Assembly (NCBI GenBank): GCA_016282915.1
Contig: JAEELW010000041.1
Coordinates: 1 to 37,269 of the forward strand
DNA: 37,269 nt
Origin: Lachnospiraceae bacterium
Lineage (GTDB): Bacteria > Bacillota > Clostridia > Lachnospirales > Lachnospiraceae
Direction: 5' to 3'
Of this stretch, positions 1-37,269 are shown piece after piece. The number at the start of each line of letters is the position of its first letter. Within the stretch, counting starts at the first letter, position 1. The translations under genes and the position numbers were made by a program. Below the pieces are notes generated by a model that saw only the letters and a list, made by a program, of their open reading frames with translations, was not told where the DNA came from and did no database searches.

Positions 1-1
1 G

Positions 2-2764
2 GATGTGAATTATTTTTTCCATGTGGGCGGTACCACGGCGAATCTCGAAAAAACGGATTACAAGAGCCAAAAAGAGAGAGCGCGCTATTATAAGAAAATG
101 GATGAGCAGATGGATACTGTTTTTGAAGGCATGCTGCTCATGTATCTGGAACTGGAAGAGCATAAAAACGATCCGGAAGTCCCCTATGAAAAGACCGTGA
201 TCAGCGCCGGGGAACAGAGCGAACGTATAGAAGCGAGAAAGCTGGAGAAGACCAAAAAGGAAAGAGACCTTATACGGAAGGAGATCGAAGCCGAAGAGCA
301 GAAGAAGCGGGAAGAAAAAGAAGCCCTCCGCAAGGCCGAGAAGGAAAAGCGGGAGCAACAGAAAAAGGAGCAGGAAGAGAAAGAAAAGGCCGGGGCAGAA
401 GCCGAAGAAAAGACAACGGCAAAGAAGAGTTCAAAGACAAAGAAGAAAGCAAAGATGAAGGCGCTGCCTAATGCGGCGAAGAAGATAAGGAATGAAAGCT
501 CGAAAGTGGCTTTGCAGAATGAAACGCTGCTCAAAGAGGGCGCAACATTATTTGCTTCCAGGCAGACCCAGCTGGCAAAGGATATCGTGAAGAAGAATCT
601 TCAGATCCAATATGATGAAAAGCGTACGGTGCGCGAAAGAAGGCGCAACGCGAAGAACCTTACCCTGGCTGTGGATCAGGTGACGGATCAGAAGATCAAG
701 CTTCGCAGATCAGTTCCGCTGGATCTTAAGAAAAAGATGGATCATCTGACCTTTACCAGATTATCCGATTTTGCTTTCATGTATGGCGGACAGGCCGAGC
801 TGGAAAAGCTGGTGAAAACTGCAGGAGAAGCAAAGGATAGAAAAAAGGAACTCGGGAAATATATCGCCGGGGGTCCCGAGCAGAAGAAAAACGATTATGC
901 CATACTGGATACTTTGACGGCAGAGCTTTTAAAGATGGATCTGCAGGCTTATGACGTGAGTTCGGACGAAGCCATATCCAGAAATGCCGTTCTGCTGGAA
1001 AAGATGGCCCGGGGTGTGGAAAGCTACCAGAAGCTGGTGCAGGAACTGGGGGGGAGTGATTATTTCGAATATCTGAAGGAGAAAAAGATCGACGGCCTGA
1101 AGGAGGATCTGTCCCAGACCGTGCTGGCACAGCTGGACCGGCTTTCTTCCATCGCGAAGTATTACCGTCTGCGCAAGCTGGCCATCGAGGATGATAACTA
1201 TATCGAGGGAAGGACGAAGGAGGATACCTTCGAAGCGGACCGGCAGAAAAAGATCGAGACCCTGTCTCAGGAACAGAGCATGCTCTTTACCGATGTCTTC
1301 AGGGATAAGCGGAAATATAACAGCGTAGATCTGAATACGATCACTATGGAAGAGCAGGAGATCCACAGATTGGAAGAGGAGCGTTTCCATGTGGCTCCGA
1401 AGTGGATGTATGATGCCTTTTCCATGACAAAGTTAAAAGAAAAGAATGAGGATCCGACCCCTGTTTTCGGCGCGGTTCTTGGCAGAGCGAATGATGAGCT
1501 CTACTCATACCAGAAGACCGTGATCAATAAGAAAGAAAACAAAGAGATGAGAAAGGTCCTTTATGAGGTCAGAGACCGGCTTGAAAAGAAGGTATTCGGC
1601 GGCTCTCCGAAGTTTATGGGAGGGAAGGATAAGTATCTTGAGAGTATTGATATCTCCGATAGCTGGGACCGTATGCTGCCCCAGCTGATCAATGTGCTGA
1701 GTTACCGGCGTACTCCCGAAGAGATGCGTGAGATGATGGAGCTTCTTACGATACAGTCAACCCCCGAATGGAAGGAGATCAAAAAGGATCCCGAGGCCGT
1801 GGCCTATTATGAAAGCGCCTTCAAGGAGATGGCCATGCGGGAGATCGCATCGGTATATGCAGTGATGAAGCGTGTCGCAAACTCCATGGCTTTAAAGATC
1901 CTGGTCATGCATCCGGCGGATCTGTCCATGCAGATGACGGTGGAGATCAAGTCGCAGCTGATGGGAGCTATCGTGGCTTCCAACATAGACTGCGGCAAGG
2001 TAAGCCGTGAAGCGGTGCAAAAGCTCTTTGCGGAGAACAATCAGGATCAACGGCATCTCTTCGACTACGAGGACTTTCTGGAGACAAACTCGCTGACAGC
2101 GAGCACCACCTTTAAGACACAGAACAACGGTGAGTTGCTGAAACAGCTGATCCATAACCCTGTGACTTTTGAAGAAGAATTTAATACGAAAATGAGTTAT
2201 GAAGAGCTGGAAAAGATGATGTTTGGACAGAAGGATACGTTAAAGGCCGGAGGACAGGAGCGTGAAAAGAAGGTGGAGGAGCTGAAAAAAAGAAAGGCTA
2301 CGGATCCCATGGCGGCGGAGGAACTGAATTGGACGAAAGGCGTGAGCTCTGAGTACTTCTTCCTTATGCAGCATCCGGAAGTCTTCAGCATGAAAAACTT
2401 CCTGGCCCGGACACCGGAGGGAGAATATATCTTTGGAAAGGAGTTCCAGCTGAACGGAAGGATCCTTCTGTCACCGGAAAATGCGGTGGGCTTGAAGAAC
2501 ATACTGGATAAGGGAAAGGTAAAGCCGCTGAATGAGAAGGAACTCAAGGCTTATGAGCAGTCCCTTAAGGATCGTAATATGCCAAAGTATATCATGGAAG
2601 AGGATCCTTATGGTATCGGCCTGTACCGGAACCATATGGATGGCCTGGTGAAAAAGGATAAAAACGGAAACGCGATCTACCGGAACGGAAAGCTGCAGAT
2701 GAAAAATCTGATCACGATGCAGGAGATCGATCCCGTAACGGGAAAGCTGAAAGAAGAAAAATAG
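2..2764 (+). CDS. C-terminal part of a large K/E-rich coiled-coil protein (5' end outside window)
   Basis: The reading frame is open at the left edge (codon GAT at 2-4) and runs 921 codons to a TAG stop. The first possible start in the window is a GTG at 5, but no ribosome binding site can be judged and the sequence reads like the inside of a protein, so I treat it as 5'-truncated. About residues 75-155 (counted from the GTG) form an extremely charged coiled coil or single alpha helix (many KKE, EEK, KREEK blocks). The rest looks helical and soluble. I see no signal peptide, membrane segment or catalytic motif. Only 31 bases and a GGAGGG ribosome binding site separate it from the next giant gene, which suggests one operon. 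I do not recognise the family. The join of a 'GG...LE' segment to a charged coil resembles the right end of the giant gene at 27170, so it could be the tail of a paralogue, but this is weak. Confidence 0.85.
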   Translation, partial: DVNYFFHVGGTTANLEKTDYKSQKERARYYKKMDEQMDTVFEGMLLMYLELEEHKNDPEVPYEKTVISAGEQSERIEARKLEKTKKERDLIRKEIEAEEQKKREEKEALRKAEKEKREQQKKEQEEKEKAGAEAEEKTTAKKSSKTKKKAKMKALPNAAKKIRNESSKVALQNETLLKEGATLFASRQTQLAKDIVKKNLQIQYDEKRTVRERRRNAKNLTLAVDQVTDQKIKLRRSVPLDLKKKMDHLTFTRLSDFAFMYGGQAELEKLVKTAGEAKDRKKELGKYIAGGPEQKKNDYAILDTLTAELLKMDLQAYDVSSDEAISRNAVLLEKMARGVESYQKLVQELGGSDYFEYLKEKKIDGLKEDLSQTVLAQLDRLSSIAKYYRLRKLAIEDDNYIEGRTKEDTFEADRQKKIETLSQEQSMLFTDVFRDKRKYNSVDLNTITMEEQEIHRLEEERFHVAPKWMYDAFSMTKLKEKNEDPTPVFGAVLGRANDELYSYQKTVINKKENKEMRKVLYEVRDRLEKKVFGGSPKFMGGKDKYLESIDISDSWDRMLPQLINVLSYRRTPEEMREMMELLTIQSTPEWKEIKKDPEAVAYYESAFKEMAMREIASVYAVMKRVANSMALKILVMHPADLSMQMTVEIKSQLMGAIVASNIDCGKVSREAVQKLFAENNQDQRHLFDYEDFLETNSLTASTTFKTQNNGELLKQLIHNPVTFEEEFNTKMSYEELEKMMFGQKDTLKAGGQEREKKVEELKKRKATDPMAAEELNWTKGVSSEYFFLMQHPEVFSMKNFLARTPEGEYIFGKEFQLNGRILLSPENAVGLKNILDKGKVKPLNEKELKAYEQSLKDRNMPKYIMEEDPYGIGLYRNHMDGLVKKDKNGNAIYRNGKLQMKNLITMQEIDPVTGKLKEEK

Positions 2765-2795: not shown

Positions 2796-5700
2796 ATGAA
2801 GGAAGCGGATGAGGTCCTCAAAAAGAGTCTCAAAACGGAGCAAAGGCTGATCAGCGAAAGGGAGCCTGAGTATTCACCGAATATCCTCGATACCGGGGAA
2901 AAGCTGCTCATGTCCCGGACACAGATACAGGGGGATAAGCAGGAAGTTATAAGGGAAAAGCAGCCGGCTTCTTATCCGGCCGTCAACGATAATGAGACAG
3001 CTGCAAAAAAAGAGACGGACATACGCCGGAATATCGATAAATATGTCCGGAGGATCGTAAACGACCGTAACCGTATGTCCGGCTACCGTAAGGTGGTCAA
3101 AGCGGCACAGCTGTACCTAGATGCGGAAAAGAAGGCAGAAAGAGCCGTGGCGCTGAAAGCCTTGCTTGAGAGCGCAAAGATCTATCTGGCGGAAGGGAGC
3201 AACAAGTCATATGGCGTGGCCCGCAAAGACCTCTGCAGGGACCTGATGGAGGTCATCGGGGAATACGAAACGGTACATAACGAAAAACACGGATCACCCG
3301 CCCTTCTGTCCGGTGCGGAATACCTGATCAGCGGAGGCGAGTTGAGTGATGAACTGGTGGATCAGGAGATCCGTATTGCTTACGCGCAGATCAAAGGAAA
3401 CAAAAAATTCTTAAGCATGAGTGAGAGCAAGCGCAGGGAGGCCTTCCGTCGAAAGATCGCCGAAATGCGCCTGGCACGGCAGCTTCGTGGGGAGATCGAC
3501 AGCCTTGATGAACAGAAGACCCGTGAACTGAACGACCTTGTGTCCGGAGATCATATTGATGATACGGCAACCGCTGCGCCGGGGTACGCCGGGGCGGTGA
3601 AAGGCTGCGTAAAGAACTTTATGAGTTTTTACCAGGCTCCTCAGAACATCATCGAGGAACAGAACATTTCTGCCGGAGATATGCCTTTAGAGCTATTGCG
3701 TGCGTTGATGTCCGGGGACGATACGAAGGAACTGAACCTGAATAAGGGAAAAGTACTGGAAACCATGTTGTACCAGATCCTGTCCTGGGATCTGAATGAA
3801 TTCGCATTTTCAAAACCCGAGGATTTTTTAAAAAAGAAAAAGGAAGGAAAGTTTAAGGAGCTTTACGGGAAGCTTCAGTTTGCTTCGAATGCGGGATCCC
3901 TTCTGGATGAACTGGAGCGCATAGGGGAGAAGAAGGTCTATCAGACCGCCATTACAGATAAACAGTTTAAGGAACTGCGCAGCCGCATCAGCCTTCTTAC
4001 CTCCGTTGAGAAGGAGTACAGTACGCGGCTTGAACTGATGAGCAGCCCTTATTATGCCCTTCTTCTGCAGGAAGATATCAGCGATCTTGATACGAAAGAG
4101 CGGAACCTGATCACGGGAGCGGATGAGGAAAAGAACGATACTTATGAGGAAAGCTACAGACGTATCCTTAAGTTGCGGAAACAGAACGGCGCCGCCGACG
4201 GAGCCTATACCCGCGGGGCGGATATGGCCAAGCTTAAAAAAGCACACGATAAAAAGTTCGCGATCCGCGGGGATTACCGGGACCGGGAGGGGGATCTGCT
4301 TCTGAAAGCGGAATCCGAGCGCATCATGATGAGCCGGCTTAAGGGACAGAAAGATGCGCTGGAGGAAGAAAAGCGGAAGATCGAAGAGAAACGTCTGGCG
4401 GACGAACGACAGAGACTTGAAGAAGAGCAGCGGAAGATACGCGAGGCGGAAGATCTTAAGAAACGGCAGGAAGAAGAACGTAAGCAACGCGAGGCGGAGG
4501 AGCTTAGGAAACGGCAGGAAGAAGAACAAAAGCAACGTGAGGAAGCCGAGCGAAAGAAGAAAGAGGAAGAAGAGCTTCGGAAGCTGGATCAGGAGGCAAG
4601 GAAGAAACGGGAAGAAGAACTGCGGAAGCAGCGGGAAGAGGAACAGAAGAGGCAGGAAGAAGAAAGAAAGCGCCGGGAAGAGGAAGAGCGGATACAGAGG
4701 GCAAAGGATGAGATCAAGGCCCTGAACGAGCGCTATGAAGCCCTGAAAGACGAAAAGGCGACGGATGAGGAAGCGGCAAAAGTCCGGGAGGACATCAAGG
4801 CGCAGCTGCTCAAACTGAGCGGCGAAGATGCGGAGACTATCGAATTTATCCCCACGGAGCTTTTGAATAAGCTGCTGGCGGATCATATCGGATCTGCCGG
4901 AACGACACAGATCGGGGATAAGCTTTCGGAGGCCATCGATCAGCTGCTGGATAAATTTGATGAAAGTTACGAGATCATAAGGAAACCTGTCCGTGAGCTG
5001 AAGAAGAAGAAGGAGCTGAATGCGGCGGAGCGTCAGTGCCTGTATGAGTATTGTTTAGACAACTTATATTATAATTCGGATTCCGAGGACTGGAAATACG
5101 ATTCTCTGAAGGAGATGCCGGCAGAAAAGCTGATCCCGCTGGCCCTTCATCTGTCCGACTATGATGAATCGAGCCCTGTGGCAAATAAGGTGGACCGCTG
5201 GAGCGACCTTTCCGAAGAGAATGTGAAAAAGCACAGACAAGCGGCGGGCGCCTTCATGGCGGAGCTTTCGGGAGAGAAGGCTGCGCTCTTTACGCTGCTT
5301 CCTTTATCGGAACTCTCGGCGCTGACCCTGGATACGGCCAACAGCCTGATGCATCCGGAAGAGCTTCAGAAAAAGCTGGATAAGTATGTGAGCCGGGCGA
5401 AACAGGTGAAGGATCGTATGGACCGGGCAAAGGCAGCAGCGGAGTCCGGTGAGAAAGACGCCATGTTTGCCATGATCGGGGAGCTAACCGGAGCGGATAC
5501 GGCTCTGATCGCGGACATCCCGGCCGACAGGCTTCAGGAGATCCTTAAGGATCTGGGAGAGATGGCAGCAATGGACAGCGCCAGCCTGGAGAGCGAGTGT
5601 AAAGAAAGGGCCGAACTGGTCCGGAAAGACTTTACGGAGGAGAAGCTGCAGGAGAACTTCTTTAAGTACAAGGGAGAAGTGGATAAGCTTGAGGAGGACG

Positions 5701-8700
5701 AAAAAGCACCCGTTGCCCGCAGCGGCAAGAGGGACTATGCCGTGCTGTATCTGAAAAAGATGCTTTCCGTCGGCGAAAAAGAGCTGGAAAACTATGATAC
5801 GGACCGGCTCTATACCATGGCTAAGGATTTCTCCCTGATCAGGCGGCTGACACAGTGGAACGATCCCGAATACGAAGAGGATCTGAAACGCAGCATCAAC
5901 GAGCTTTACGGCCTGGATATCCCCCAGGAGATGAAGGATAAGATGGGGGAGCTGCTTAATATCAAAGTGGAGAAGGCGGCCATCCCTGAGCAGACATATG
6001 AAGAACTGAAGGGCGTAAAGGCGGATCAGGAGTATAAAAAGAATACGGAGCTCTTCCGGGAAAGAAAGCTGGGAGAGCCGGTCTTTGACGAAAAACTGAA
6101 GATGAAAGAGCAGAGCGTCGAGTACCGGAAGCATCTCGAAGCCCTGAAGGAAAGCACAAAGAGCAAAAAGAAAAAGGATGCTCCCAAAACAAAGGCAGCT
6201 GCGGCAGCCTGGAGCAAAGAGTCCGTAAGCGTTCTTAACTTTGCAGGTGATGCTGTGGAATGCCTGATGCCCGGTACCGCCGGGCAGGATAAGGCTGTGG
6301 CGCTTCAGAAGCTGTTCATGAAAAACACGAAGCTTTTAAAGGCATTCAGTGAGGCAAAGCTTAAAAAGAAAAGCGGAGATCCCTTTACGGAGATCCTGAA
6401 AAATATCAGCAATGAGCAGAGAAAGATCTTTGATGAACTGCGTATCGTCGTAAATGAGCTGGTCTCCACCTGTGAAAAAAGCGCCATGTCCATGGAGAGA
6501 TTTTTAGCCTCCGACCGGATGACGGCTTTCTGTTCCGAAGCGGCAGGAAAGCTGGAAGGGGCAGTGGCGGCCCTGGAAGCCGAAGTAGTGGAAAAGATGG
6601 AGCCCGTCACCACCAATATCTTTGACCAGGTGGAGGGCATGGGCATGATCCCGCTGGTGGATGACCTGGACAATGCCGATGCCACAAAGGAAGAGAAAAG
6701 GAGAGAGGGAGTCCGGAAGCTGGATTACATGCAGAACGAGCTTCTCTATGACCGGGAACGGGGACAGGGCAAGTTCATGGAGCTGCTCACCTCCGGATAT
6801 TTTAAGAACGCTTCCCCCCAGAACCGCCGCTTCATGCTTTCCTATATCGTTAAGGATATGCAGAAAAAAACGGAGGGCGGGACCGACGCGGAGTTGGGAG
6901 GCCATTATTTTGCTTCCGCCATGAAGGGAGCGGGGCCGCTGATGCAGAAGATGATCCAGGGTCTGCCCGAGCGTATGGTGGTGCCGGAGATGCGGGAGGC
7001 CGTTATGGTGGTCAAATCCAATCTGCGGCCCATTGATGCGGAATACAAACAGCAGGTCTTTGAACGCATGAAAAAAGACTCCAAGGGAAAGATCATTGAG
7101 ATCAACGAGCTTCAGTCCCTGGGGGCGGCTTCCGTGGCGGAGACTTTTCTATGTGAGGTGGTTAGGAAGAACGAGCAGCCTGTGAAGGTGGTCATAAAGA
7201 TCAAGCGTCCCGATGCCATGCAGCGCATGCAGGATGAGCTTTCCTTTATCCGGAAATGCTCCAGGGATGCGGATTTTTCCTATGAAGAGCAGGAGTATCT
7301 GGCGGATCCGCAGAAGTTTGAACAGGAATACGCAACGAAACATGATCTGAAGGATCAGAAGGAGAAGAAGCGCTACAATGAGCTCGTAAACAGCGCGAAG
7401 AAGAAAGACTTAAGCATCGGCGTGACCGAGTCCGGTTTCCTGGCGCAGTTTTCTGCCATCGAAAAAGAGTTTGATTTCAAAAACGAGTTGGCCAATGCCA
7501 AGCGCGGCGAGAAAAACTATATCTCGAACAAACGTCATGTAAATACCGTAAAGATCGATGACAGCTTTAAGGCGGATGCGGATTATATCGTTATGAACCT
7601 TGCCGAAGGACAGACACTGGATACCTATATACGCAACACCCGTGATTTTGTGGAGGACACCATGTCCGTCTATAAGAACGAGGACACGGCATCCAAAGAA
7701 AAATATGTGTTGAATGCTTATAATGTATCCACCTATATCCTGAACAGACAGGCGCTGGTAAGGAAGCTGAACGAAGCGAAGGAAAGGCAGAATTATGTTT
7801 CCGATCTGGCATACCAGTGGATCAAGATGGCGATCTTCGGCAGCAGCACCCTGTCCGTAAACGGCGAGAATTTCCATCACGGGGATCTGCATTCCGGCAA
7901 TATCATGATCAGCGATAAGGGAACAACGGTGCTGGATTACGGTAACGCCACGGTCCTGGTGGATTCCAAGGTCACCCAGATCCTGGGGATGATGACGGCG
8001 GTAGCGGCGAACCGTACGGACTTTTTTGTGGATGCCTTTGATGAACTCTTAGGCATTGCGGAAGCGGAGGATGAAAAGCTGGAAGGCAAGCCCGGCTATG
8101 TGGGTTATTCCCGTATGTCGCTGGCCCAGAAAAGGGAATACGAAAAGAAGTTAAAGGAGATCTTTGCCCTGGGCAGCCAGAAGGATGCCGGCAAAAAGAT
8201 CCTTCTGTCCCTTTCCATCGCACAGGAGATGGGACTGAAACTCCCCCGGGAGATACAGAACTTTTCCCAGTGCCAGCAACGCCTGGAAAACAGTGTGCTG
8301 GAGATCAAGGATACCGCGGTGGAGATCGCAAAGACCCTTCAAAATATGGAACGCATAACGGTGGATCCGAAGTTTAAGAATGTACCGGATCCCGTCATGC
8401 TGCTGCAGGGCATGCTGGGTGTGAAAAATGAGAAGGGGGAATACGTTTACAACAAAAGTTCCGCGTACTCCAAAGTACTGTCCCAGTTTGCCGTGGATTC
8501 GGCGGACAGGATCCTGGAAAGCGCAGGGAAGCTGGATGGTTCCGAGGAAGAGACCGGGAAATTTGCCCGCAGTTTCCTTCCCGGATATCCCGGGATCAAA
8601 ACGGATTCCATTTTTAATAACAGGGCGGAATTTGCGAAGATCAAAGAGGATTTTTACAAGGTCAGAAGTTATATCGACAAAGGGGAAGCGGTTCCCGAAG

Positions 8701-10453: not shown

Positions 10454-10469
10454 GGAAGAGGGATAGGAA

Positions 10470-10485: not shown

Positions 10486-10514
10486 GTATACTTGAGCATA
10501 AGGAGGGGCAATCC

Positions 10515-27169: not shown

Positions 27170-30100
27170 ATGAAAGAAAAAGACAAGGAGCAGGTAAAGG
27201 TAAAGAAGGAACAGCCTGTTATACAGGGGGAACAGCAGAAACCGCAGGAACAGGCTGTTTTGAAGCAGGAACAGCCCGTTCTGCAGCAGGAACAGAAGCA
27301 GAACGAAAGCCTGCTTGCCGGCCAGCAGAACCTTCAGGCCGTTCCGAAGGAGGAGGAAAAGCTCCGTCAGAAGGATGACAAAGAAAAGGCGGAAGAGAAT
27401 AAGATCAAAAAAACTGCGACCCTGAAAAAGGTCGAAAAAAATATGCCGGAGCCGATGGGGGGAGTGCAGCATCAGAATAATGCGCCCCTTCCCGATCATC
27501 ATTACCGGCTTCCCAATGCCACCCAGGTCATAGAAGCGGGAGTGCAGCAGGATCCCAATAACTGCTATGCCTGCTCCGCTTCGCTTTCCTTTAACCTGTT
27601 TCTTAAGAATAACGGGGAACTTACGGGCTTGAACGAGGCCAACCAGTTTAGGATCCGCCGCTATCACCCGGGGTTCAAAAACTTTGATGATATGAAGGGG
27701 ATCATAGCGCAGAAACTCGGCATTGATATTAGCAAAAAGGAAGGCCTTGAACAGGTACGGAGTCTGTATGATTCTTATTGCGCTGAGATCGATACTTACT
27801 GCGGAAGGGGAAAGGACGAAGTCGGAAATATATATGAGCTTGGCGATTATTTCCTTGAACGGAGCAAGGATGTTGCCCTTCACAAGATGACCTTTGCGGT
27901 ACCCAGTAAAGAGTATAAAACACATATAACGGTGAACGGGGTAAAGATCCCGGTTCCCTATGACAAAGAGCAGCAGGAAGAAGCAGACAGGACCTACAAC
28001 GATATGAAGGTGACCCTGCTGAATAAGCTTAAGGAAGTCTTGGAGACCGGTAATGCGGTATCCTTCCTCAGGAACGGTCATTACCTGACCATCGTGGGTA
28101 TCGATGGTCAGAAACTGATCTATGCCAATTCTTCCAATCCGAAGGTGGAGGAATCCGCGGATGTGGATACTTTCCTGGACCGTTCCGGATACGGCACCTC
28201 GGCGGAGATGACCTGGTTTTCGAAGGTGGGGGATGTTCAGAAACTGAAAGAGGATTACCCGAATCTGGAGTATGACCAGGAAAACGGTTTTACCGCCCAG
28301 GACCGCGCAGTGGGAGATCTGCTCTATGTATCTCACAAAAAAGGTATTTCCGTGTCCAGGGATGTCTTAGGCAGCCAGGTGACGGAATCGGTATATCTGC
28401 CCACGAATAAGAAAGCCTGGGAAAACGAGCAGCTTGAGGAGGATAAGGAAGTCCTTGCCGGTGTGGATCTTAAAACGAAAGTACACATCGATGAAAAGAA
28501 GGCGGAACGTTTCGAGGCCATGAAGAAGGAACGCAGCTCGAACGTATCCGGGGTGAAAGAAGAAAAGCCCGTGATGAGCGGGTATCAGCCGGAATTCTGG
28601 GAGAAACGCTGGGAAGCTCTGAAGCGTGAGCGTATGGAGGACATCAATGCACTGCGCGGAAGAGTAAAGAGTGAATATCGTGACAAGAAAGCATTACAGG
28701 CGTTCCAAAGAAAGAAGGAAACGCTCTCGCTGCTTTGCAGTGATGATGAATTCTGGGAGCAGGAGAAGGTTTCCTTAAACGGTAATGATAAGATTCTTGC
28801 CGACTATGAAAGGCTCGGAAAGGAGATCGAGCTTAAGGGCATGATCGTGGACCAGATACTCATCGATGACGAACTGATGGCTGTTCCTGCCATATCGACG
28901 ATCATGGCTAAGTATCAGGCTCTCGACAGCATTCTGGCTGACGCTGTGACCACGGTAGACCGGGTGGAAGAGATCGAAGCGCATTACATGGAACTGATCG
29001 GTGATATGAACCGCTACGTCAACGGCAACATGGCGGACCGTATCGGCAAAAAGGGGAAGATCAAAGCGCTGCCCGGCGGAGATCTGCTCCGTGACCTTAT
29101 GGATATTTTCGTGAAGGAGAGGGATAACCTTTCCGCCGATCTGGCCCAGTGGAAAGAGAACGGTTTCATCCCGGCGGATGTATCCAAGGGCTATGATATC
29201 ATATCGCGCAAGGCCATGGCCGGTGAGCTTGTGGACAGTCCGAAGCATATCATGTACAAAGAAAAACTCGCCCTCTGGTCAAGAAGACGTGATAACCGAA
29301 AAGAAGACAGCACACAGATGAAAGCTGTCAAAGATTCCTTTACCAAGCTGCAGCTCGCCCTGGGCGAAAAGATCTACGATGATCCGGAGGACATGAAGGA
29401 ACAGGCCAAGATCCTGGCGGCCATATTTGATGACGTGATCAAGAAATCAAATAAGTATCTGAAGGATCACAAAAGCCCCCGTAACGATGACGGGAAAGAG
29501 CGCCGTGACGCCGTGGAAGTGATCCTGAATAACGCGAAGACCGCTAAGGTGGGGATCTTTGTGGCGGAACAGAAGATGCGGGAGTGGAAGCTTACGGGCA
29601 AGACCTGGGCGGATGCCTATGCCCTTTCCGTGAATACCACCGCAAATCTCTTTACAAAGAGCATGGTCACCCGGGAGAACATCGAAAAGAACAAGCAGGC
29701 GGAAATAAAGAAGGATATGATCGCCGAGCTTGCAAAGGTAAAACAGAGCGAACTCAGCACCCGCAAGAAGAAGGAAGTACTCATCACGGATGCGAAGAAA
29801 CGAAAAGAGTATTTAAGAAAGCAGAACAAGAAAAAGGCTACGCCGGCCATGGTGCTCTTCTTCCGTACCGGTGTCTGGAAAGAGGATGCGACTAAGGATG
29901 ATGTGAAGAATACAAAGAATGTCCGGAAAGACTGGGTGATCGGGAAGTTTGAAGACTGGGCATACGATGATTTCTTCGGTCATGAATGGATCAGTCCCGA
30001 GGCATACCGGGCCAATGTGGAGGAAATGAACCGGCATGCATTCGAGAATCTCAAAAAGATCCATGACATGGATGTGAAACAGCTGCGGAACCGTTTCCTG

Positions 30101-33100
30101 CGGCAGCTGATGAGTGTTTACGGGAATCATGTGAGTGAGGATCAGGTTCAGCAGCTGGGTAATCTCGGTATCGGATACGAACGCCAGATGGAAGAACTGG
30201 AGCGTCTTGAGAGAGGAGATTATGACAAAAAAGAATACGGCAGCCTGAAGGAGTACAATTCCATCGAGCGGATCGTGAACCTCCGCTTTGACCTGGTAGA
30301 TGACGAGATCCGGAATATATACAAGAACAAGCTCTTAAAGAGCCCCTCCTGTATGATGGAGGATGGGCTGGCCTTTCTGTTTACGCTGGACGATATCGTG
30401 GAGGATGATGAGGACTATGCAAGACTCGAAAAACTCCGGGAGATCGGGAAGAATTATGATAAGGTCACGGAGGAACTGGATCTTCAGATCCGGGGCCGGG
30501 ATATCTACGAAAGCGAGGCTATCCGGAAGATCATCATCGGTGAGGTTAAACTCAGTGATAAAGATTATGAGATGATCAAGGAAAATGTAAGAGATCTTGA
30601 TAAGCTCATCGAGGATATGGTGGGAGACAAGTTCAGCTATCTCACGTATTATGAGGTCCGGGCCGGGCTTCTGGCCTTCCTCGGAGACAAGATCCTTTTC
30701 GGCAAATATGACTTTGTGCGTGATCTGGCAGAAGAGTATATGGACAGGATCGCCGTCACGAACCGTGAGGCGGCCAGGATGGAAAACGACTACAATATCG
30801 CATACGAGAAGGCCATGAAGAAGGGCGTGTTCAGCAAACAGCTGAAAAAGTCCGGCGCTGCCCTTCTGTATTCCGGCAGACGTTTCTGGAAGAACCTTAA
30901 TAAAGAAGACCAGATCGGCGGCAGGACCAAACGTATGAGGGAGAGACTCAGGCTGATCACCCTGGTGGATTCCGTGCTGACCGAGGAGACCGAAGGGAAA
31001 AAGTTTACCCGTAATACCTGGAACTGGCTCATGGGCAGGATGGAATATATGGCAGCCTGGAGACTGGCGAATGAAGACACGCCGGATGAAGGCTGGTTTA
31101 AGACCTCGGCGGAGGAAAAAAAGCTCCGTGAAAAGATCCGTACGTGGATCCGGGATGATATCGAGGCAAAGACAAAGCACGAGGAAAAGAAGAAGGGGCT
31201 GAAGGTATACATCGACAGGAAGGAATTCCTGGATGAAAAAGAGCCCGTGAACGATTATGTGAGAAAGGGCAAGGTGAAACATATCAATGTGATCCGGAAG
31301 GATGACTATACTTTTGCCGGACTCCTGCGCGGCAAATATTTCATTGAATCGCCGGAGATCGAAGATCTCATCCCGGATCAGGAGCTCAGGAATTTTCTCT
31401 GCGATAATATCGGGAGCGCGGTCTGCTGTAATCCCGAGCTGAAGGAGCTTTTCCCCTTCCTTAAGAATATCGAGAGCCTGGACCAACTGGAAAGCCTGTC
31501 CATCAGCCAGTACAAGACCGTGCTCAATTACTTCAGGAACAATCTGCTGGCGGACGATGTGGTCGAGGGGGTGAAAAATCTCCTTAAGGAATCCGACAAG
31601 GAAAAGGAAACGAAAGAACAGCGTGAGATCCGTAAGTATACCCTTCTGGAAGTGATGAAACATAAGACGGACACGAAAGGGATGAGCAAGATCATTGCCG
31701 ATCAGCAGAAGATGCTCTCCTCTCAGGATGAACTCCACTACAAGCGTATCATGATCAGCCTCGGGAAGAGTGCGCAGCGGCGTGACGGAAAGATCCATTA
31801 CCGTTATAACGATATCCTTGAGGATGACAAGTCCTGGTTTAAAAAGGATACGTATTTTGCAAAGCGGCTTAAGAATTTCGACAGAGCCCATGAGGTATGG
31901 GGACTGCTGGAGGAACTCGGCCCCGAAGCGGTGCAGCAGGTAAAGACCTGGATCATCGAGATCATCAACAAGACACTGGAGGATCAGGGCAATGGGCAGG
32001 AGGACCGGTACAAAAAGCTGGCTGCGATGCTTTCCCATGATTATAAGGCAGAGAATGCAAACATCGAAAAAGTGATCGAGGAGAATAAAGGCAAAAAGAA
32101 GCAGAAGGCCATCCCCGAGAGAAAAGTCTTTGAATTTGTGCCGGATCAAAGGCTGGAAGAAAGGTTTAAAAAGACACACGAAAAGGATCCCAGATACAAG
32201 GGGAAGGATCTGCTTTCCGCCATCCGCGACATCTTCATGGAGGGAAGGTCGAAGGATAACGAAGATAAGAGCACTCCGCTTCCTCCCGTGGCCGACTATC
32301 TGCTTGAGATGTCCATGTTCGATTACCACGACCTTGTTCTGGGACACGGCGGAAACGGTCAGGGCCTGCTCTGGGCGGACAAGTCGCAGAAAGGCAGTTC
32401 CATGTACAGGTCTGCCATGTATGCACAGTCCAAGGACACCATACAGAAGGTGAACGAACTGGAAAATGAACTGAAACGCTTCAGTGATCCGAAGTTCAGG
32501 GAGATCCTCCGGGATAAGCTGGCACCGCTTTATCTGCATATGAAGTTTGATCATACGCGAGTCAGATATAAGTATAACAGGGACTATGTAAAGCTTCAGA
32601 AGAAAACGGAGGAAGCCAATCGCCTCAACATGCAGTATCTGAATGCTAAAGAGACGCTGTCCCAGATGAAGCAAGAGGCAAAGACCGGTAAAAATGTAAA
32701 TCCGGAGACCATCAAGGTACTGGAGGATGAGGTCAATAAACTCCATAAAGATGCGGATAAGGCTGCCGTCGAAATGATGAAGGACAAGAAGCGTATCGAT
32801 GACATCTTACATTCCGCCGACATGACGAATGTGAGTAAAGAGGAGTTTGATGAGATCCAGGAGAATGAGCGGAGATTCGGTATCGGCAATATCGGACAGA
32901 TCTCAAGTATGCTTCTGTCCCATATCAGTGATAACGGTGAGCTTTCCGCACAGCTGTGTGATACGGTAGCCCTTTATGATTCCCGGAGGAGAATGTTTGA
33001 AAACTACGGGGACGGAGAACTGGCACCCTTCTGGGATGAGCTGGTAAAGATCGACGCGATCTTTAAGGATCTCATCGACCCGGCAGATACCGTTGCCGGG

Positions 33101-36100
33101 GAGCGCATCAAAAATCTTTATGAAAAACTGTCACCTCTCGGGAAAGCCCTGAAGGAACAGTATTCCTATGTCAATGATTTCTTTATAGAGACGGAACTTG
33201 GGAATCTGATGGACGGGGAAAAGAAGTCCTCGCAAAAGATCTGGAGCGAGCTTAAGGATAAGAGTGAAAAGGAGCAGGTTGCATACTGGAACAAGAGGCT
33301 CCTGGATGCCCAGAAGCAGATCATGGAGCAGGGTGTAAAGGGCGAAAAATCCGTACATCACAATATGGCAGACGCGCACGATACGCTCCGGAAAGAGCTG
33401 GCCAAGTATTTCGTGGATCAGCCCGATTTTGAAAAGAAGATCAAAGAACAGGAAAGTATCGTGGAGGGCGGTCTCTTTGCCGATTCCGATATCCTGAAAC
33501 TGGCAAAGAAGAATGAGCAGAAGCGCTTTAAGGCTTCCGCTCTGGCGCTCCGTAAGGCGGACGGGGTGATCTACAACATAGAGACCTACGTCCTCACGGA
33601 TCCCGACTGCATACAGCAGGCCTATGATGTGGGAACGTTAAAGGCGCTTTATACAGAGATCGCGCGGCATTATATCAAAAACACGGAACTGGCGGAAAGG
33701 ACCATCGTGAAGTATATCCTCAGTACGGAATATGATGTGGCGGATGCCGAGGGTATGGACGATGTGGCACTGAACGAAAAGCTCAATTCCCTTACCAAAG
33801 AGCAGAAGCGGAAGATCCGGAATACGAAGGAGGCGTTCCTTACCCACGTAGAGGGTCCCTGCATCAAGGAAAAGGCAGCGGATTTTGAAAAGCAGGTCAA
33901 AGACAGGGCCAAATACTTTGTCACAGAGACCAACGCCCAGCTGGAAGCAGATATCAGCTTCACCGAGGAATACCGCGAAGGCGCCAGGAAACGTCTGGAG
34001 CAGCGTAAGAAAGCGTCTCTGGCAGTGCAGACCGTCAAGTCAAAAGGCAGGACCGCGTACAGCAACGCCCTTTTCGGTGGAAGACTGGATGAGCTAAAAG
34101 CCTTTGGTGACAAGAAGAGAGCCCTCATTTATACGAAGGAGGGACAGGACGGTTCCCAGGTCATAAGCAAGGGAGAAAAAGAAGACAAGGAGCTCTTCAG
34201 GGAAGCAAAGAAGCACTTCATGAAGAAAGGCGGCGCTCCGGAGTATCCCGATATCCTGGCAGATTGTCTGGATGAGTATATACGCGTCAACAGCGGGATC
34301 CTGGAAAAGGCAGACCGCTTTGTCGACTGGGTCACCAAAAATGATAATCATATTGTTCAAGAAGAGAAGCGCCTGAAAGCCATCTACGATTACGGGAAAA
34401 CAAAGGCAGGCCTTCCTGATTATGCGGTGGATCTCTATGTCGCATATCTGGCAAAGTACGTGAAGGCAAGCGTCGATGTGGAGGAGGGCCTTGAACTGTC
34501 CATTAAACAGGTGTCCAAGGAGATCATGCCCTATATCGAAAAGCTGCATGAGCTGGATGAGCTCAGTTTCGGCCAGCCCTCTTTAAAGCTTGCCCACAGG
34601 GATGCATGCGAAAAGATGCGCGCATATCTCTTCATGGTCAATGACCGCTCAGCAGATGATCTGGGCAAATTCTCCAACATGATCGAGGCGCAGAAAGCTT
34701 TCTTTACCCATGCGGAGACAGCGCTTTCTGCCATCGAAGAGGCAGTAAAGAGCGATTCCTATACCGGCCTGCTTGAAAAGGCAGATCAGGTCAGATATGT
34801 CAACGGGCTTTACGAGTACTTTGTATCGGATATGCTGGAAGAAAGCAAGGCGCAGATGGATGACCATTCACGTGTATTTGATGTTGCCGCTTTTAAAGCC
34901 AAGGTATCAGAGCGTATCGCTGACAGCTTCAGCCGTGAGGCGCTTATGGTAAAGGACGGCCAGGTCAGCTATCTGGATATGCGCGAAAAGAATATCTATG
35001 CGGGCGGCGTAGACCAGAACGATTTCGAGCAGTATATGATCCGCTCCTTCGGGGACGAATTCATCAAGGATTATAATGCGCTGGATGATGACCAGAAGAA
35101 GATCTTTGCCATGGGACTTTATGTGGGCAAGACCGAAGAGCGGGGTACCATGCGGGCGATCTACGGGCTGTCCAATACGGAGGTAAAGGCCGCCAGAAAC
35201 GATATCATGTCTTATATGAAGAGCGAGAAGGTAAGCCTTCATGTGGATTACGGCAAAGCCATGCGGGCCCTTACCGCGTCCGGCAAGGGTGCAAAGGTGC
35301 TTGCGGACAAATCCCTCTTCGACCAGGCGCTGGTATTTGTAAAACAGATCGAGTCCCAGCGGGATGAACTGCGTCCGAAGGATTACATGAGGATGGCGGA
35401 CAGCAAGACCATAGCACAGGCTGCGGATTCCTTCAGGGCACACCTGGGTACAAAGCACAAGGATTTCAAGAATGAAAACTACAGGGAAGTCCTGAATGTG
35501 GATCTTGATGACCGGCATGCGTTCCTGAATAAACTGATGGAATATCAGAAAAGCGACCAGACACGTGCAAAGGATAAGAGCACGCGTATCCAGGGTATCA
35601 TGGAGCAGGTGAAGGCCCTTACCGTAAGCCAGCAGTCGCTGCTGATCTATGTGCTGCAGGACAGGACCGTGCTTGACAATTCCGCCATGAAGGACAGTAA
35701 GACGAAACTGATACCTTTTGTAAATTCCGAAAAGCGTTTCGAGATCTTTGATAAGCTGCAGAGCAGCGAGGGACGGCTTGATGCCTTAAAGCAGGCTGCG
35801 GATCCGAAGCTGATATGCGAATCCATGAGACAGCTTTTGAGTTTCCAGCTAAGAGACGATAAGGAGCTTTCGGAAGGAGAGCTTAAGGAGAGTGATTTTG
35901 TTGCAGATTCCTTAAAGCGCAGGGATGCCCTGGACTGGGATCTTCTGCAGAGGGGTATCGATTTTGTCAACGAGATCGAAAACGAACGGCTTCGTATCTC
36001 CACGGTCAGAATGGCCGGAGAACTGATCACGAGGGAGGATTACAAGAAAGATTCTCCGGAGATCCGCTTCTATTACAGGCATATGCCCCGTCTCCTTACT

Positions 36101-37269
36101 CAGGACGAGCTCAGCCAGGAAGAAACAATGGAGGGTATCATCCATCAGGCCTATGCGGAGGATAAGGCGGATATCAAAAAATACAGCTTTAAGAACAACA
36201 CGGTCATGGATGACCTTATGGCAGGATTTACCGCCCTGTCGCCGGAGGAAAAGAATCTCTTCTACCGTGCCCTTGAGCACAGGGACATCCTGGATGTCTC
36301 CCAGAAGAATCTGTACCTGAACATTATCGGCAAGGGAGAACGTGACTATGTGAATCCCAAGGGGCGTAACGATCTGGCGGATGAGTTTATCAACAATAAA
36401 GGCAATGTGGAACTCGGCCGAAGAGCATATGAAAAGGCCCTGTTATCCCTGTGCAGCACACAGATCAATGACGATATGGACTTCTCAAAGATCAAGGGAG
36501 TTTCCCAGGCCGAGCGCAACCTTACGGTCACAAACCAGCTGATGGTCCAGGACCGGGGAACCTGGTTTGGAGGCAAGACCAGGTTTGACTGGAAGCTCTT
36601 TGCCAGAGCGCTGCAGTTTGTCTATCGTACCGTGAACGAAATGAAACTGGCCGCCGGTGACGAAGAGGTCTATAAAGCGCTGGGTGACAAGAGCCAGGGC
36701 GAGATGAAGATCGACAGAAGCTACTTAAGGCAGAATCTCCACCATACCGGAGCAAGATTCCTGCGCTTCCTGGGCGGTGAGGCAGCCCAGCAGCTGGAGA
36801 GCCCCATCAGCTATTTTGATACAGCTACGGATTATGCCAATTTCGTGTTGTCCGCCAAGACTACGAATTACTTAAAGAGCAAGTCAAGACAGCTGGCCGG
36901 CAAGGGAGAGAAGAACAAGTATGAAGAGGCGGAAGATAAGGAAAAGGAAAAGCAGGACAAGCTGACCGCCGAGATCGAAGCAAACAAGTCGGCCCTGGAA
37001 GAAGAGAGAGAGCATGACAAGAAGGTAAAGAAAAAAGAAGATGAGAGGGAAGATCCCAACAAGGTAAAAGAAGAACGGGAAAAGAGCATCGAAGAGAACA
37101 AAAAGAAAATGGAGACCCTTGAGAAGAAGAACGGGGATCTGAAGAAAAAGATCGAGGCGCAGCAGGCGATCCTGAAGCAGAAGAATCTGTCGGATGAAGA
37201 CAAGAAAAAGGCGAACGAGTCGCTGAAGGGCTTCACTGATGAACTGAAGCAGAACGCCATCGACACGGA
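27170..37269 (+). CDS. Giant protein (at least 3366 aa) with N-terminal papain-like cysteine peptidase domain (3' end outside window)
   Basis: From the ATG at 27170 the frame has no stop to the right edge: 3366 complete codons plus two bases. Residues 13-60 are Gln/Pro/Glu-rich with repeated EQPV. About 110-345 looks like a papain-like (CA clan, C39/C70-like) peptidase: QQDPNNCYACSAS places Gln126 six residues before Cys132, as in papain's Q..C spacing, with CYACSAS parallel to CWAFSAV; NGHYLTIVGID gives His304 and YANSSNP Asn320. The following 2900 residues are soluble and mainly helical, without signal peptide or membrane helices, and contain diverged repeats beginning near 2637, 2816 and 3022. 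From about 3237 a K/E coiled coil starts. The peptidase might mature the protein itself or act on a partner or host target. Family naming is motif-based; the body is unrecognised. Charge, length and codon use match the giants at 2-16930. Confidence 0.93.
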   Translation, partial: MKEKDKEQVKVKKEQPVIQGEQQKPQEQAVLKQEQPVLQQEQKQNESLLAGQQNLQAVPKEEEKLRQKDDKEKAEENKIKKTATLKKVEKNMPEPMGGVQHQNNAPLPDHHYRLPNATQVIEAGVQQDPNNCYACSASLSFNLFLKNNGELTGLNEANQFRIRRYHPGFKNFDDMKGIIAQKLGIDISKKEGLEQVRSLYDSYCAEIDTYCGRGKDEVGNIYELGDYFLERSKDVALHKMTFAVPSKEYKTHITVNGVKIPVPYDKEQQEEADRTYNDMKVTLLNKLKEVLETGNAVSFLRNGHYLTIVGIDGQKLIYANSSNPKVEESADVDTFLDRSGYGTSAEMTWFSKVGDVQKLKEDYPNLEYDQENGFTAQDRAVGDLLYVSHKKGISVSRDVLGSQVTESVYLPTNKKAWENEQLEEDKEVLAGVDLKTKVHIDEKKAERFEAMKKERSSNVSGVKEEKPVMSGYQPEFWEKRWEALKRERMEDINALRGRVKSEYRDKKALQAFQRKKETLSLLCSDDEFWEQEKVSLNGNDKILADYERLGKEIELKGMIVDQILIDDELMAVPAISTIMAKYQALDSILADAVTTVDRVEEIEAHYMELIGDMNRYVNGNMADRIGKKGKIKALPGGDLLRDLMDIFVKERDNLSADLAQWKENGFIPADVSKGYDIISRKAMAGELVDSPKHIMYKEKLALWSRRRDNRKEDSTQMKAVKDSFTKLQLALGEKIYDDPEDMKEQAKILAAIFDDVIKKSNKYLKDHKSPRNDDGKERRDAVEVILNNAKTAKVGIFVAEQKMREWKLTGKTWADAYALSVNTTANLFTKSMVTRENIEKNKQAEIKKDMIAELAKVKQSELSTRKKKEVLITDAKKRKEYLRKQNKKKATPAMVLFFRTGVWKEDATKDDVKNTKNVRKDWVIGKFEDWAYDDFFGHEWISPEAYRANVEEMNRHAFENLKKIHDMDVKQLRNRFLRQLMSVYGNHVSEDQVQQLGNLGIGYERQMEELERLERGDYDKKEYGSLKEYNSIERIVNLRFDLVDDEIRNIYKNKLLKSPSCMMEDGLAFLFTLDDIVEDDEDYARLEKLREIGKNYDKVTEELDLQIRGRDIYESEAIRKIIIGEVKLSDKDYEMIKENVRDLDKLIEDMVGDKFSYLTYYEVRAGLLAFLGDKILFGKYDFVRDLAEEYMDRIAVTNREAARMENDYNIAYEKAMKKGVFSKQLKKSGAALLYSGRRFWKNLNKEDQIGGRTKRMRERLRLITLVDSVLTEETEGKKFTRNTWNWLMGRMEYMAAWRLANEDTPDEGWFKTSAEEKKLREKIRTWIRDDIEAKTKHEEKKKGLKVYIDRKEFLDEKEPVNDYVRKGKVKHINVIRKDDYTFAGLLRGKYFIESPEIEDLIPDQELRNFLCDNIGSAVCCNPELKELFPFLKNIESLDQLESLSISQYKTVLNYFRNNLLADDVVEGVKNLLKESDKEKETKEQREIRKYTLLEVMKHKTDTKGMSKIIADQQKMLSSQDELHYKRIMISLGKSAQRRDGKIHYRYNDILEDDKSWFKKDTYFAKRLKNFDRAHEVWGLLEELGPEAVQQVKTWIIEIINKTLEDQGNGQEDRYKKLAAMLSHDYKAENANIEKVIEENKGKKKQKAIPERKVFEFVPDQRLEERFKKTHEKDPRYKGKDLLSAIRDIFMEGRSKDNEDKSTPLPPVADYLLEMSMFDYHDLVLGHGGNGQGLLWADKSQKGSSMYRSAMYAQSKDTIQKVNELENELKRFSDPKFREILRDKLAPLYLHMKFDHTRVRYKYNRDYVKLQKKTEEANRLNMQYLNAKETLSQMKQEAKTGKNVNPETIKVLEDEVNKLHKDADKAAVEMMKDKKRIDDILHSADMTNVSKEEFDEIQENERRFGIGNIGQISSMLLSHISDNGELSAQLCDTVALYDSRRRMFENYGDGELAPFWDELVKIDAIFKDLIDPADTVAGERIKNLYEKLSPLGKALKEQYSYVNDFFIETELGNLMDGEKKSSQKIWSELKDKSEKEQVAYWNKRLLDAQKQIMEQGVKGEKSVHHNMADAHDTLRKELAKYFVDQPDFEKKIKEQESIVEGGLFADSDILKLAKKNEQKRFKASALALRKADGVIYNIETYVLTDPDCIQQAYDVGTLKALYTEIARHYIKNTELAERTIVKYILSTEYDVADAEGMDDVALNEKLNSLTKEQKRKIRNTKEAFLTHVEGPCIKEKAADFEKQVKDRAKYFVTETNAQLEADISFTEEYREGARKRLEQRKKASLAVQTVKSKGRTAYSNALFGGRLDELKAFGDKKRALIYTKEGQDGSQVISKGEKEDKELFREAKKHFMKKGGAPEYPDILADCLDEYIRVNSGILEKADRFVDWVTKNDNHIVQEEKRLKAIYDYGKTKAGLPDYAVDLYVAYLAKYVKASVDVEEGLELSIKQVSKEIMPYIEKLHELDELSFGQPSLKLAHRDACEKMRAYLFMVNDRSADDLGKFSNMIEAQKAFFTHAETALSAIEEAVKSDSYTGLLEKADQVRYVNGLYEYFVSDMLEESKAQMDDHSRVFDVAAFKAKVSERIADSFSREALMVKDGQVSYLDMREKNIYAGGVDQNDFEQYMIRSFGDEFIKDYNALDDDQKKIFAMGLYVGKTEERGTMRAIYGLSNTEVKAARNDIMSYMKSEKVSLHVDYGKAMRALTASGKGAKVLADKSLFDQALVFVKQIESQRDELRPKDYMRMADSKTIAQAADSFRAHLGTKHKDFKNENYREVLNVDLDDRHAFLNKLMEYQKSDQTRAKDKSTRIQGIMEQVKALTVSQQSLLIYVLQDRTVLDNSAMKDSKTKLIPFVNSEKRFEIFDKLQSSEGRLDALKQAADPKLICESMRQLLSFQLRDDKELSEGELKESDFVADSLKRRDALDWDLLQRGIDFVNEIENERLRISTVRMAGELITREDYKKDSPEIRFYYRHMPRLLTQDELSQEETMEGIIHQAYAEDKADIKKYSFKNNTVMDDLMAGFTALSPEEKNLFYRALEHRDILDVSQKNLYLNIIGKGERDYVNPKGRNDLADEFINNKGNVELGRRAYEKALLSLCSTQINDDMDFSKIKGVSQAERNLTVTNQLMVQDRGTWFGGKTRFDWKLFARALQFVYRTVNEMKLAAGDEEVYKALGDKSQGEMKIDRSYLRQNLHHTGARFLRFLGGEAAQQLESPISYFDTATDYANFVLSAKTTNYLKSKSRQLAGKGEKNKYEEAEDKEKEKQDKLTAEIEANKSALEEEREHDKKVKKKEDEREDPNKVKEEREKSIEENKKKMETLEKKNGDLKKKIEAQQAILKQKNLSDEDKKKANESLKGFTDELKQNAIDT
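35078..36391 (+). repeat. Diverged internal protein repeats in the giant peptidase protein
   Basis: Segments starting at residues 2637 (35078), 2816 (35615) and 3022 (36224) share the pattern AL[TSD]..[QE]..L/F...L. The last two also share a DR/HRD-x-LD-S step and a later [FY]VN...R....D block: ALTVSQQSLLIYVLQDRTVL versus ALSPEEKNLFYRALEHRDIL. Spacing is about 180-206 residues. Similarity is at the protein level only, so the repeats are old. They suggest that the body is built from tandem helical modules. Confidence 0.5.

What the first reader, a model, noticed from the sequence alone, without database searches (positions are those of the whole stretch)
1..37269. Giant-protein locus carrying a set of protein-modification enzymes
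Within about 28 kb of giant-gene sequence (excluding the 18-27 kb cassette) there are two ABC1/UbiB-type kinase domains embedded in coiled-coil giants, a GNAT enzyme coupled to one of them, a PARP-like candidate, a tandem GNAT-like protein and a papain-like peptidase at the head of a giant of at least 3366 residues. The scaffolds share very high K/E content, lack of signal peptides and, in one pair, a common module. That looks like one undescribed system (intracellular modification machine, polymorphic effector set or defence island), not unrelated neighbours.
Basis: partly seen in the sequence, partly recalled or inferred. Interest (0 to 1): 0.85.

Follow-up and report, generated by a model that had tools for sequence, protein, structure and literature searches.

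The report
Giant effectors of a contractile injector
This stretch of a gut bacterium's genome encodes several unusually large proteins with kinase, peptidase and possibly ADP-ribosyltransferase parts that look like the payload of a phage-tail-like injection machine encoded elsewhere in the same genome, an arsenal that I did not find described for this group of bacteria.

Summary
The window is a whole 37.3-kb contig encoding five K/E-rich proteins: two with divergent UbiB/ABC1 kinases (B, D), one with a papain-fold peptidase head (P), one PARP-like by motif only (E), one truncated (A), plus two GNAT-like genes (C, F). D, E and P share a ~95-residue module unknown to Pfam; two giants of other species combine the peptidase, module and kinase in one protein, so this is one polymorphic family (77 kinase-giant loci seen, Lachnospiraceae wherever a family or genus is named). 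A GNAT-like gene directly follows the kinase giant in 41 of 63 cases.

The window's genome has one. In its genus strong module hits and a CIS sheath coincide (12 of 12 against 0 of 23, cut-off chosen afterwards, only two or three independent events). Of 50 kinase-giant genomes 46 carry Pvc16, against 20 of 200 in a family sample. In one relative a giant-GNAT pair lies directly upstream of CIS genes. Best reading: CIS effectors with dedicated GNAT partners. Delivery, targets, GNAT role and ART activity are untested. I found no description in print in the searches named.

The parts
2..2764 (+). A: 3' part of a K/E-rich giant, 5' end cut by the contig end (920 aa seen)
   Evidence: residues 201 onward share a region with module-bearing proteins L183.9 and L198.1 (iterated profile, E 4e-38 and 8e-36); no Pfam hit; module not significant
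2796..9926 (+). B: 2376-aa giant with a UbiB-like kinase
   Evidence: homologue of 2491 aa in G079:C30, E 2.6e-161. Module not significant in B; profile comparison of B-type N-termini with the module inconclusive (prob 12.7%, E 0.0023)
6687..8423 (+). UbiB-like kinase region of B (residues 1298-1876)
   Evidence: profile; catalytic residues kept in alignment A1
9923..10453 (+). C: GNAT acetyltransferase overlapping the end of B
   Evidence: PF13302 1.8e-25; close relatives in five other giant loci, L056, L062, L064, L066, L067
10515..15425 (+). D: 1636-aa giant with module and UbiB-like kinase
11001..11288 (+). shared module in D (residues 163-258)
   Evidence: 5.9e-29
12600..14294 (+). UbiB-like kinase region of D (residues 696-1260)
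   Evidence: (PF03109 7.1e-16)
15452..16930 (+). E: 492-aa protein with the module and a PARP/ART-like C-terminal part (motif only)
   Evidence: module 2.1e-22; relatives of similar length in six other loci, five of them aligned with E; ART assignment from a glycine-rich G-x-x-G-x-G-x-Y pattern, recalled
15749..16015 (+). shared module in E (residues 100-188)
17234..18046 (+). F: tandem GNAT-like gene, partner of E by its place
   Evidence: homologues L182.1, L175.2, L177.5, L187.8, L117.5 (8.5e-34 to 6.9e-20), each directly beside an E-like gene; not seen in the sixth E-like locus, L106, where E lies near the locus edge
18275..27122 (+). signalling cassette (EAL/GGDEF, HD-GYP, hybrid histidine kinase, response regulator); a neighbour, membership unproven
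27170..37267 (+). P: giant of at least 3366 aa, 3' end cut
   Evidence: residues 1084-1790 and 2038-2476 recur in L053.8, a giant separated by two GNAT-like genes from a D-type kinase giant
27545..28405 (+). papain-fold peptidase head of P (residues 126-412)
29255..29548 (+). shared module in P (residues 696-793)
   Evidence: found by the A4 profile, which has no P in it: genome search 29291-29539, E 6.4e-10; 2.1e-11 among the seven window proteins; missed by the default filters

Best explanation
The window is an effector island of a Pvc16/Afp-type contractile injection system (CIS) in a Lachnospiraceae bacterium. The giants belong to one polymorphic family: a variable N-terminal stretch, a shared helical module, long K/E-rich scaffold, and a varying enzyme part (UbiB-like kinase, papain-fold peptidase, PARP-like domain; in relatives also a calpain-like peptidase). 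The module, near residue 90 in most members, probably docks the protein for loading (by the Pvc15-like AAA+ ATPase, or onto the tube or baseplate). GNAT-like genes beside the giants are dedicated partners, most likely holding, acylating or neutralising their giant before delivery. On contact with a target cell, perhaps a competing microbe or a gut eukaryote such as a ciliate, the enzyme parts would be injected. SHOWN: the shared module, the mixing of domains, the GNAT pairing, the co-occurrence with CIS genes and, in relatives, their adjacency. INFERRED: loading, injection, target, GNAT role, enzyme activities.
For: One family: the module profile hits D, E and P of the window, 71 of 92 distinct kinase ORFs and 46 distinct other ORFs, starting at residues 60-130 in 49 of 67 kinase and 30 of 42 other proteins that begin with M. 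L061.5 and L127.4 each carry the P-type peptidase, the module and the UbiB kinase. Two non-kinase members carry calpain Peptidase_C2 (5.7e-13, 5.1e-23). CIS in the window's genome, G000:C113: Pvc16_N 8.9e-27, sheath 4.6e-17, tube gp19 9.4e-31, Phage_base_V 3.1e-20, gp25 4e-17, two Baseplate_J (8 of 10 proteins tested had a hit); the protein at its fetched end, G000C113.31, is homologous to L117.3 and L194.1, which hold the AAA+ motif GAPGTGKS. Co-occurrence: in 35 genomes of the genus, sheath in 12, module at E <= 1e-9 in the same 12 and in 0 of the 23 others; T7SS EssC does not track the module (5 of 12 against 5 of 23, p 0.26). Family sample of 200: Pvc16 in 20, module at E <= 1e-5 in 7, of which 5 have Pvc16 (p 1.1e-4, 8.1e-4 without the window's genome). 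Of 50 genomes taken only because they hold a kinase giant, 46 have Pvc16. Linkage: in L094 the giant, its GNAT, an 82-aa ORF, then five genes homologous to the start of the CIS cluster, in the same order and on one strand, with Pvc16 further along a contig of the same length; in L117 AAA+, FtsE-like, GNAT, E-type effector, kinase giant, GNAT; an array of kinase giants (L079, L173) is on the contig of a sheath. GNAT-like genes: 41 of 63 at rank +1, 20 of 51 at rank -1, 13 of 199 at ranks 4-8; by Pfam alone 35 of 59 downstream and 13 of 42 upstream.
Against: No CIS gene lies in the window; the CIS is on another contig. The cut-off of 1e-9 was chosen after seeing the data (the next genome, G010, has 1.3e-9); at 1e-5 three and at 1e-3 eight genomes have the module without a sheath. 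On an rpoB tree of 29 of the 35 genomes (11 of the 12 with a sheath) the pattern needs only three changes, two or three independent contrasts, sign test p 0.5, so the Fisher values overstate it. In the 200-genome sample 2 of 7 module genomes (G163, G169) lack Pvc16 and 15 of 20 Pvc16 genomes lack the module. Four of 50 kinase-giant genomes lack Pvc16. P-type peptidase giants also occur in G117 and G041, which are not among the Pvc16 hits. In L117 the Pvc16 hit is on a different contig. The module is not significant in A or B; 21 of 92 distinct kinase ORFs lack it, 11 of these beginning with M. The GNAT families were built from the same loci in which they were then counted. No delivery, particle or activity data. 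A protein of at least 3366 aa is large for a CIS payload.
Confidence: 0.72

Rival explanations
1. Cytoplasmic regulatory scaffolds: the giants stay in the cell and act as modification machines (kinase, GNAT, peptidase) in a signalling or stress network next to c-di-GMP and SpoIIE/STAS genes.
For: No strongly hydrophobic stretch in the window's giants, and in only 2 of 100 kinase ORFs; signalling cassette in the window; one SpoIIE-like phosphatase cluster in 19 loci and one STAS cluster in 10 (classes recalled from the sequences).
Against: Patchy presence (20 of 35 genomes at E <= 1e-3); one module joined to unrelated enzyme types; co-occurrence with CIS genes and adjacency in relatives. The CIS cluster itself has a STAS gene related to those near giants (11 loci), so the signalling genes fit the CIS reading too.
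Confidence: 0.13
2. Giants and CIS are not functionally tied; both mark a lineage or life style and travel together by shared ancestry or in the same islands.
For: Only two or three independent events in the genus; 18 of 77 record titles name a ruminant gut site and one horse faeces, most of the rest carry codes some of which I recall as rumen projects.
Against: 46 of 50 genomes against 20 of 200 and direct gene adjacency in L094 and L117.
Confidence: 0.1
3. Anti-phage or other intracellular conflict system (defence island) with GNAT antitoxins.
For: Varying enzyme domains with adjacent small partners.
Against: PADLOC gives only two weak kinase-motif hits (0.002, 0.007) in the five proteins tested; presence follows the CIS; other defence genes nearby were not surveyed.
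Confidence: 0.05

Closest known systems
Payloads of Afp/PVC-type extracellular contractile injection systems (including the giant Afp18 of Serratia entomophila, recalled)
   Same: Enzyme-bearing proteins tied to a Pvc16-type CIS with an AAA+ (Pvc15-like) ATPase; in PVC the Pvc15 ATPase selects payloads by N-terminal signals (abstract and section 3.1 of PMC11495950 seen).
   Different: Here a shared ~95-aa module not in Pfam, GNAT partners and genes often on other contigs than the CIS (6 of 30 listed Pvc16 loci share a contig with a kinase-giant locus). The PVC paper describes disordered N-terminal signals with rare homology. DUF4157, which passages of PMC8213781 link to eCIS toxins, was not hit in the window's proteins.
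UbiB/ABC1/COQ8 atypical kinases (PDB 7cy2, 5yjz)
   Same: A-rich loop, K-x-x-Q, catalytic lysine, H-x-D...N and D-[FY]-G conserved (motif names recalled); PDB relatives by profile at E about 1e-3.
   Different: Embedded in long K/E-rich scaffolds (median 1765 aa in 73 complete ORFs); the glycine of K-x-G-Q is replaced; quinone pathways were not examined.
Papain-fold peptidases: UfSP, ZUFSP/ZUP1, C39-like
   Different: 10-14% identity; Foldseek itself has no match at E <= 0.001; joined to a giant scaffold and the module; cathepsins and papain score almost as high, so specificity is open.
Polymorphic effectors with a shared sorting domain (for example RIX-domain T6SS effectors; PMC10435454, search listing and start of abstract only)
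   Same: One module joined to varying enzymes.
   Different: Other secretion system, no known sequence relation; no immunity activity shown for the neighbours here.

Membership tests
CIS (Afp/PVC-type) payload proteins | Genome encodes a CIS with Pvc16, sheath, tube, baseplate and spike | tested here: met
   G000:C113
CIS (Afp/PVC-type) payload proteins | Gene next to or downstream of the CIS operon | tested here: inconclusive
   Not in the window's contig; relatives: next to CIS genes in L094 and L117, same contig for L079
CIS (Afp/PVC-type) payload proteins | N-terminal loading signal | tested here: inconclusive
   A conserved module near the N-terminus exists; its role as a signal is inferred
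CIS (Afp/PVC-type) payload proteins | Packaged in and delivered by the particle | not testable with these tools
   needs proteomics and gene-removal strains
UbiB/ABC1 kinases | Match to the family model over the curated cut-off | tested here: met
   D 58.5 bits against 22.9; B over the cut-off only with its neighbouring pieces in the frame (40 bits)
UbiB/ABC1 kinases | KxGQ motif (recalled) | tested here: inconclusive
   K and Q invariant in 7 of 7, the glycine replaced
UbiB/ABC1 kinases | Catalytic HxD...N and DFG-like residues | tested here: met
   7 of 7 rows
Papain-like cysteine peptidases | Papain fold | tested here: met
Papain-like cysteine peptidases | Catalytic Cys and His | tested here: met
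   C33 and H205 invariant in A5 (4 rows) and A8 (5 rows); that they are the catalytic pair is inferred
GNAT acetyltransferases | C matches a GNAT model | tested here: met
   PF13302 1.8e-25
GNAT acetyltransferases | F matches a GNAT model | tested here: inconclusive
   no Pfam or NCBIfam hit; grouped with GNAT-like neighbours by profiles of related loci
PARP/ADP-ribosyltransferases | Family or fold match | tested here: inconclusive
   no hit; fold model pLDDT 50.6; motif only
Known anti-phage defence systems | PADLOC model match | tested here: not met
   A-E only: two weak kinase-motif hits

The most novel reading that the evidence does not exclude
A new class of CIS payload: giant proteins up to more than 3300 aa that combine UbiB-like kinases, deconjugase-like peptidases, PARP-like and calpain-like domains behind one new loading module, each matured by a dedicated GNAT partner (an acyl or acetyl switch comparable in logic to toxin-activating acyltransferases), carried by gut Lachnospiraceae and aimed at rumen ciliates or fungi.
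Probability: 0.3. Interest if true: 0.92.

Novelty: new variant of a known kind. Interest (0 to 1): 0.8.

Why it matters
If true, gut Lachnospiraceae, among them cultured Butyrivibrio, carry contractile injectors with a large effector repertoire, UbiB-family kinases would join the delivered effectors, and the module would allow such effectors to be listed from sequence. It bears on warfare between microbes, and perhaps between bacteria and protozoa, in the rumen, and on how a CIS handles very large payloads. That I found no earlier description rests on the listings (open-licence PMC papers only, mostly the top 8-20 rows of longer lists) and on word look-ups in six papers.

Tried and rejected
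Counting ABC1 hits as giants: of 25 ABC1 matches in the genome most cover only the catalytic-loop part of the model (about 140-220), which I took for ordinary Ser/Thr kinases without testing each. G028:C244 (1995-aa frame) was set aside because its protein had no blastp match to the window proteins at 1e-4. Viral origin: 1 of 43 candidate stretches in IMG/VR was a weak relative; PHROGs gives only kinase-motif hits, best 1.1e-6 for D (A, B, D, E, F tested). T7SS delivery: EssC does not track the module. ART fold for E: poor model, PDB profile searches empty or spurious. Module in B: left open. Module as a known Pfam family: 2 of 20 members had single weak hits (PF12918 0.0042, Hormone_3 0.0093), taken as chance. 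Neighbour genes were called by a greedy longest-ORF script, so small genes under long antisense ORFs (F of the window is an example) can be missed and some listed neighbours may be spurious. Rows dropped: one search left out L052, L054 and the window, neighbours cut by a locus end and neighbours on the other strand; of its 64 downstream genes the 5 of 700 aa or more were left out, and likewise long ones upstream; one search left out L075, L105, cut neighbours, and neighbours that are themselves kinase or module proteins. The 77 loci come from 54 assemblies by my count of the titles; one search took 50 (L075 and L105 left out as duplicates of G007 and G020, L133 and L135 for the cap). Of the 61 module hits I did not fetch all: 40 regions were taken.
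Full report
WHAT IS THERE. The window is one entire contig (G000:C76) of a 3.85-Mb genome. It encodes, on one strand, five K/E-rich proteins (A, B, D, E, P), two GNAT-like genes (C, F) and a four-gene signalling cassette. B and D contain homologous kinase regions (28% over 608 aa, E 2.7e-52). An alignment of seven such regions from four genomes keeps the features I recall for UbiB kinases: an alanine-rich loop (SLGAASVGET), a K-x-x-Q segment, the catalytic lysine, H-x-D-L-H-x-G-N and D-[FY]-G-N. They look catalytically intact; activity is untested.

ONE FAMILY. A profile started from D residues 161-262 grew to 87 ORFs in the window and related loci, 18 of them without the kinase (17 distinct), among them E of the window (2.5e-11). 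Rebuilt from 20 rows without P, it also found P (6.4e-10) and a further protein in the window's genome, on C105. Among distinct ORFs it occurs in 71 of 92 kinase proteins and in 46 others (cut or near-identical copies were not merged). The rest of these proteins differs: UbiB-like kinase, E-type, calpain (5.7e-13 and 5.1e-23), and a 13-member cluster some of which have weak Fam20C or PI3/4-kinase hits (0.028, 0.017). L061.5 and L127.4 carry the P-type peptidase, the module and the UbiB kinase in one protein. The module is not in Pfam. A and B do not show it significantly; B belongs by its kinase, A by a region shared with two module proteins.

SPREAD. A scan of one genome per species with the kinase alignment gave 237 matching stretches that encode a relative; the best 80 were kept and form 77 loci. 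Their titles say Lachnospiraceae, Butyrivibrio, Pseudobutyrivibrio or Eubacterium, except five named only 'bacterium' or Clostridiales; 18 of 77 name a ruminant gut site and one horse faeces, the rest carry strain or project codes. The median of 73 complete kinase ORFs is 1765 aa, range 755-2693. In the window's genus 20 of 35 genomes have the module at E <= 1e-3.

PARTNERS. Of 59 immediate downstream genes scanned, 35 match Acetyltransf_1; of 42 upstream genes, 13. With families built from the loci, GNAT-like genes make up 41 of 63 at rank +1 and 20 of 51 at rank -1, against 13 of 199 at ranks 4-8; these families were built from the same loci, so the Pfam counts are the cleaner evidence. Around the non-kinase module proteins of L168-L207 the pattern is mirrored: 15 of 27 at rank -1, 5 of 28 at rank +1. 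Partners go with effector type: F has five relatives, each directly beside an E-type gene; in the sixth E-type locus, L106, none was seen near the locus edge. In 53 of 64 cases the downstream same-strand gene starts within 61 bp or overlaps, as in an operon.

THE DELIVERY LINK. Because the pattern resembles secreted effectors, I looked for a machine. A phage-type sheath is present, in one copy each, in 12 of 35 genomes of the genus. Those 12 are exactly the genomes with module hits at E <= 1e-9 (0 of 23 others). That cut-off was chosen afterwards: G010 follows at 1.3e-9, three more genomes come in at 1e-5 and eight at 1e-3. On an rpoB tree of 29 of these genomes (11 of the 12 with a sheath) the pattern needs only three changes, with two or three independent contrasts, all concordant. 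So this part alone is suggestive. Outside the genus: in 200 family genomes Pvc16 occurs in 20 and the module (E <= 1e-5) in 7, of which 5 overlap, including all five with E below 1e-10; G163 and G169 have the module without Pvc16. Of 50 genomes chosen only for a kinase giant, 46 have Pvc16. T7SS EssC does not follow the module.

PHYSICAL LINKAGE. In L094 the kinase giant (6581-12598) and its GNAT (12579-13604) are followed, after an 82-aa ORF, by five genes homologous (29-60% identity) to the start of the window genome's CIS cluster, in the same order; Pvc16 lies further along a contig of the same length. In L117 an AAA+ ATPase with GAPGTGKS, homologous to the one at the end of that cluster, stands before an FtsE-like ATPase, a GNAT, an E-type effector, a kinase giant and a GNAT; the Pvc16 of that genome is on another contig. 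For the window itself no such linkage can be seen; its CIS is on contig C113.

HOW IT PROBABLY WORKS. Giants are made in the cytoplasm, held or modified by their GNAT partner, recognised through the module and loaded into a CIS with the help of its AAA+ ATPase, and injected on contact. Only the sequence relations are shown. Size is a difficulty: P exceeds 3300 residues. The GNAT role could be chaperone, activator or immunity; pairing by effector type favours a dedicated partner over a general enzyme. Targets are unknown; calpain-like, deconjugase-like and PARP-like parts suggest eukaryotes, and the rumen holds many ciliates, but this is inference.

LITERATURE. The listings showed no paper on a CIS or on these giants in Lachnospiraceae or the rumen; I saw listings and abstract starts, often only the top rows. 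In six papers I looked up words only: five on CIS hold no 'Lachno(spir)' or 'rumen', and the cockroach paper (PMC10266427) holds 'contractile injection' only in its reference list. Of PMC11495950 I saw the abstract and one section. Subscription papers and preprints were not covered.

VERDICT. New variant of a known kind (CIS payloads), with an undescribed module, UbiB-like kinase effectors and GNAT partners.

Noticed in passing
L214:3647-20000 and L215 (G000:C113 37647-74000): The CIS cluster also encodes membrane proteins, a protein with MORN-like repeats, a TolC-like protein, a STAS protein, an FtsE-like ATPase and a membrane histidine-kinase-like protein, which suggests an envelope-anchored rather than a released CIS (classes recalled from the sequences).
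   Followed up: partly
L214:19913-20000 continuing in L215:1-2684 (G000:C113 53913-56684): A 923-aa CIS-cluster protein with a repeat of about 30 residues (16 matches to its core pattern); the protein at the same place in other genomes has 541-742 aa.
   Followed up: no
L079 and L173 (whole): Tandem array of several kinase giants and a 612-aa module protein, on the contig of a CIS sheath.
   Followed up: partly
L203:1446-5135 and L193:4032-7157: Module-bearing proteins with a calpain (Peptidase_C2) domain.
   Followed up: partly
L132:13799-17623, L181:2260-5730, L196:4013-6355 and relatives: A 13-member cluster of module proteins, some with weak Fam20C or PI3/4-kinase hits, possibly a second kinase class.
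   Followed up: no
L059:9390-20000: Three further K/E-rich giants (1338, 1001 and at least 1141 aa), two of them 41% identical, near a P-type peptidase giant in a genome (G041) without a Pvc16 hit.
   Followed up: no
G000:C43:18345-22571: The window's genome also has a T7SS EssC-like ATPase over the family cut-off.
   Followed up: no
window 30335-32746 (-): An 803-aa antisense ORF inside P, probably an artefact of codon use.
   Followed up: no
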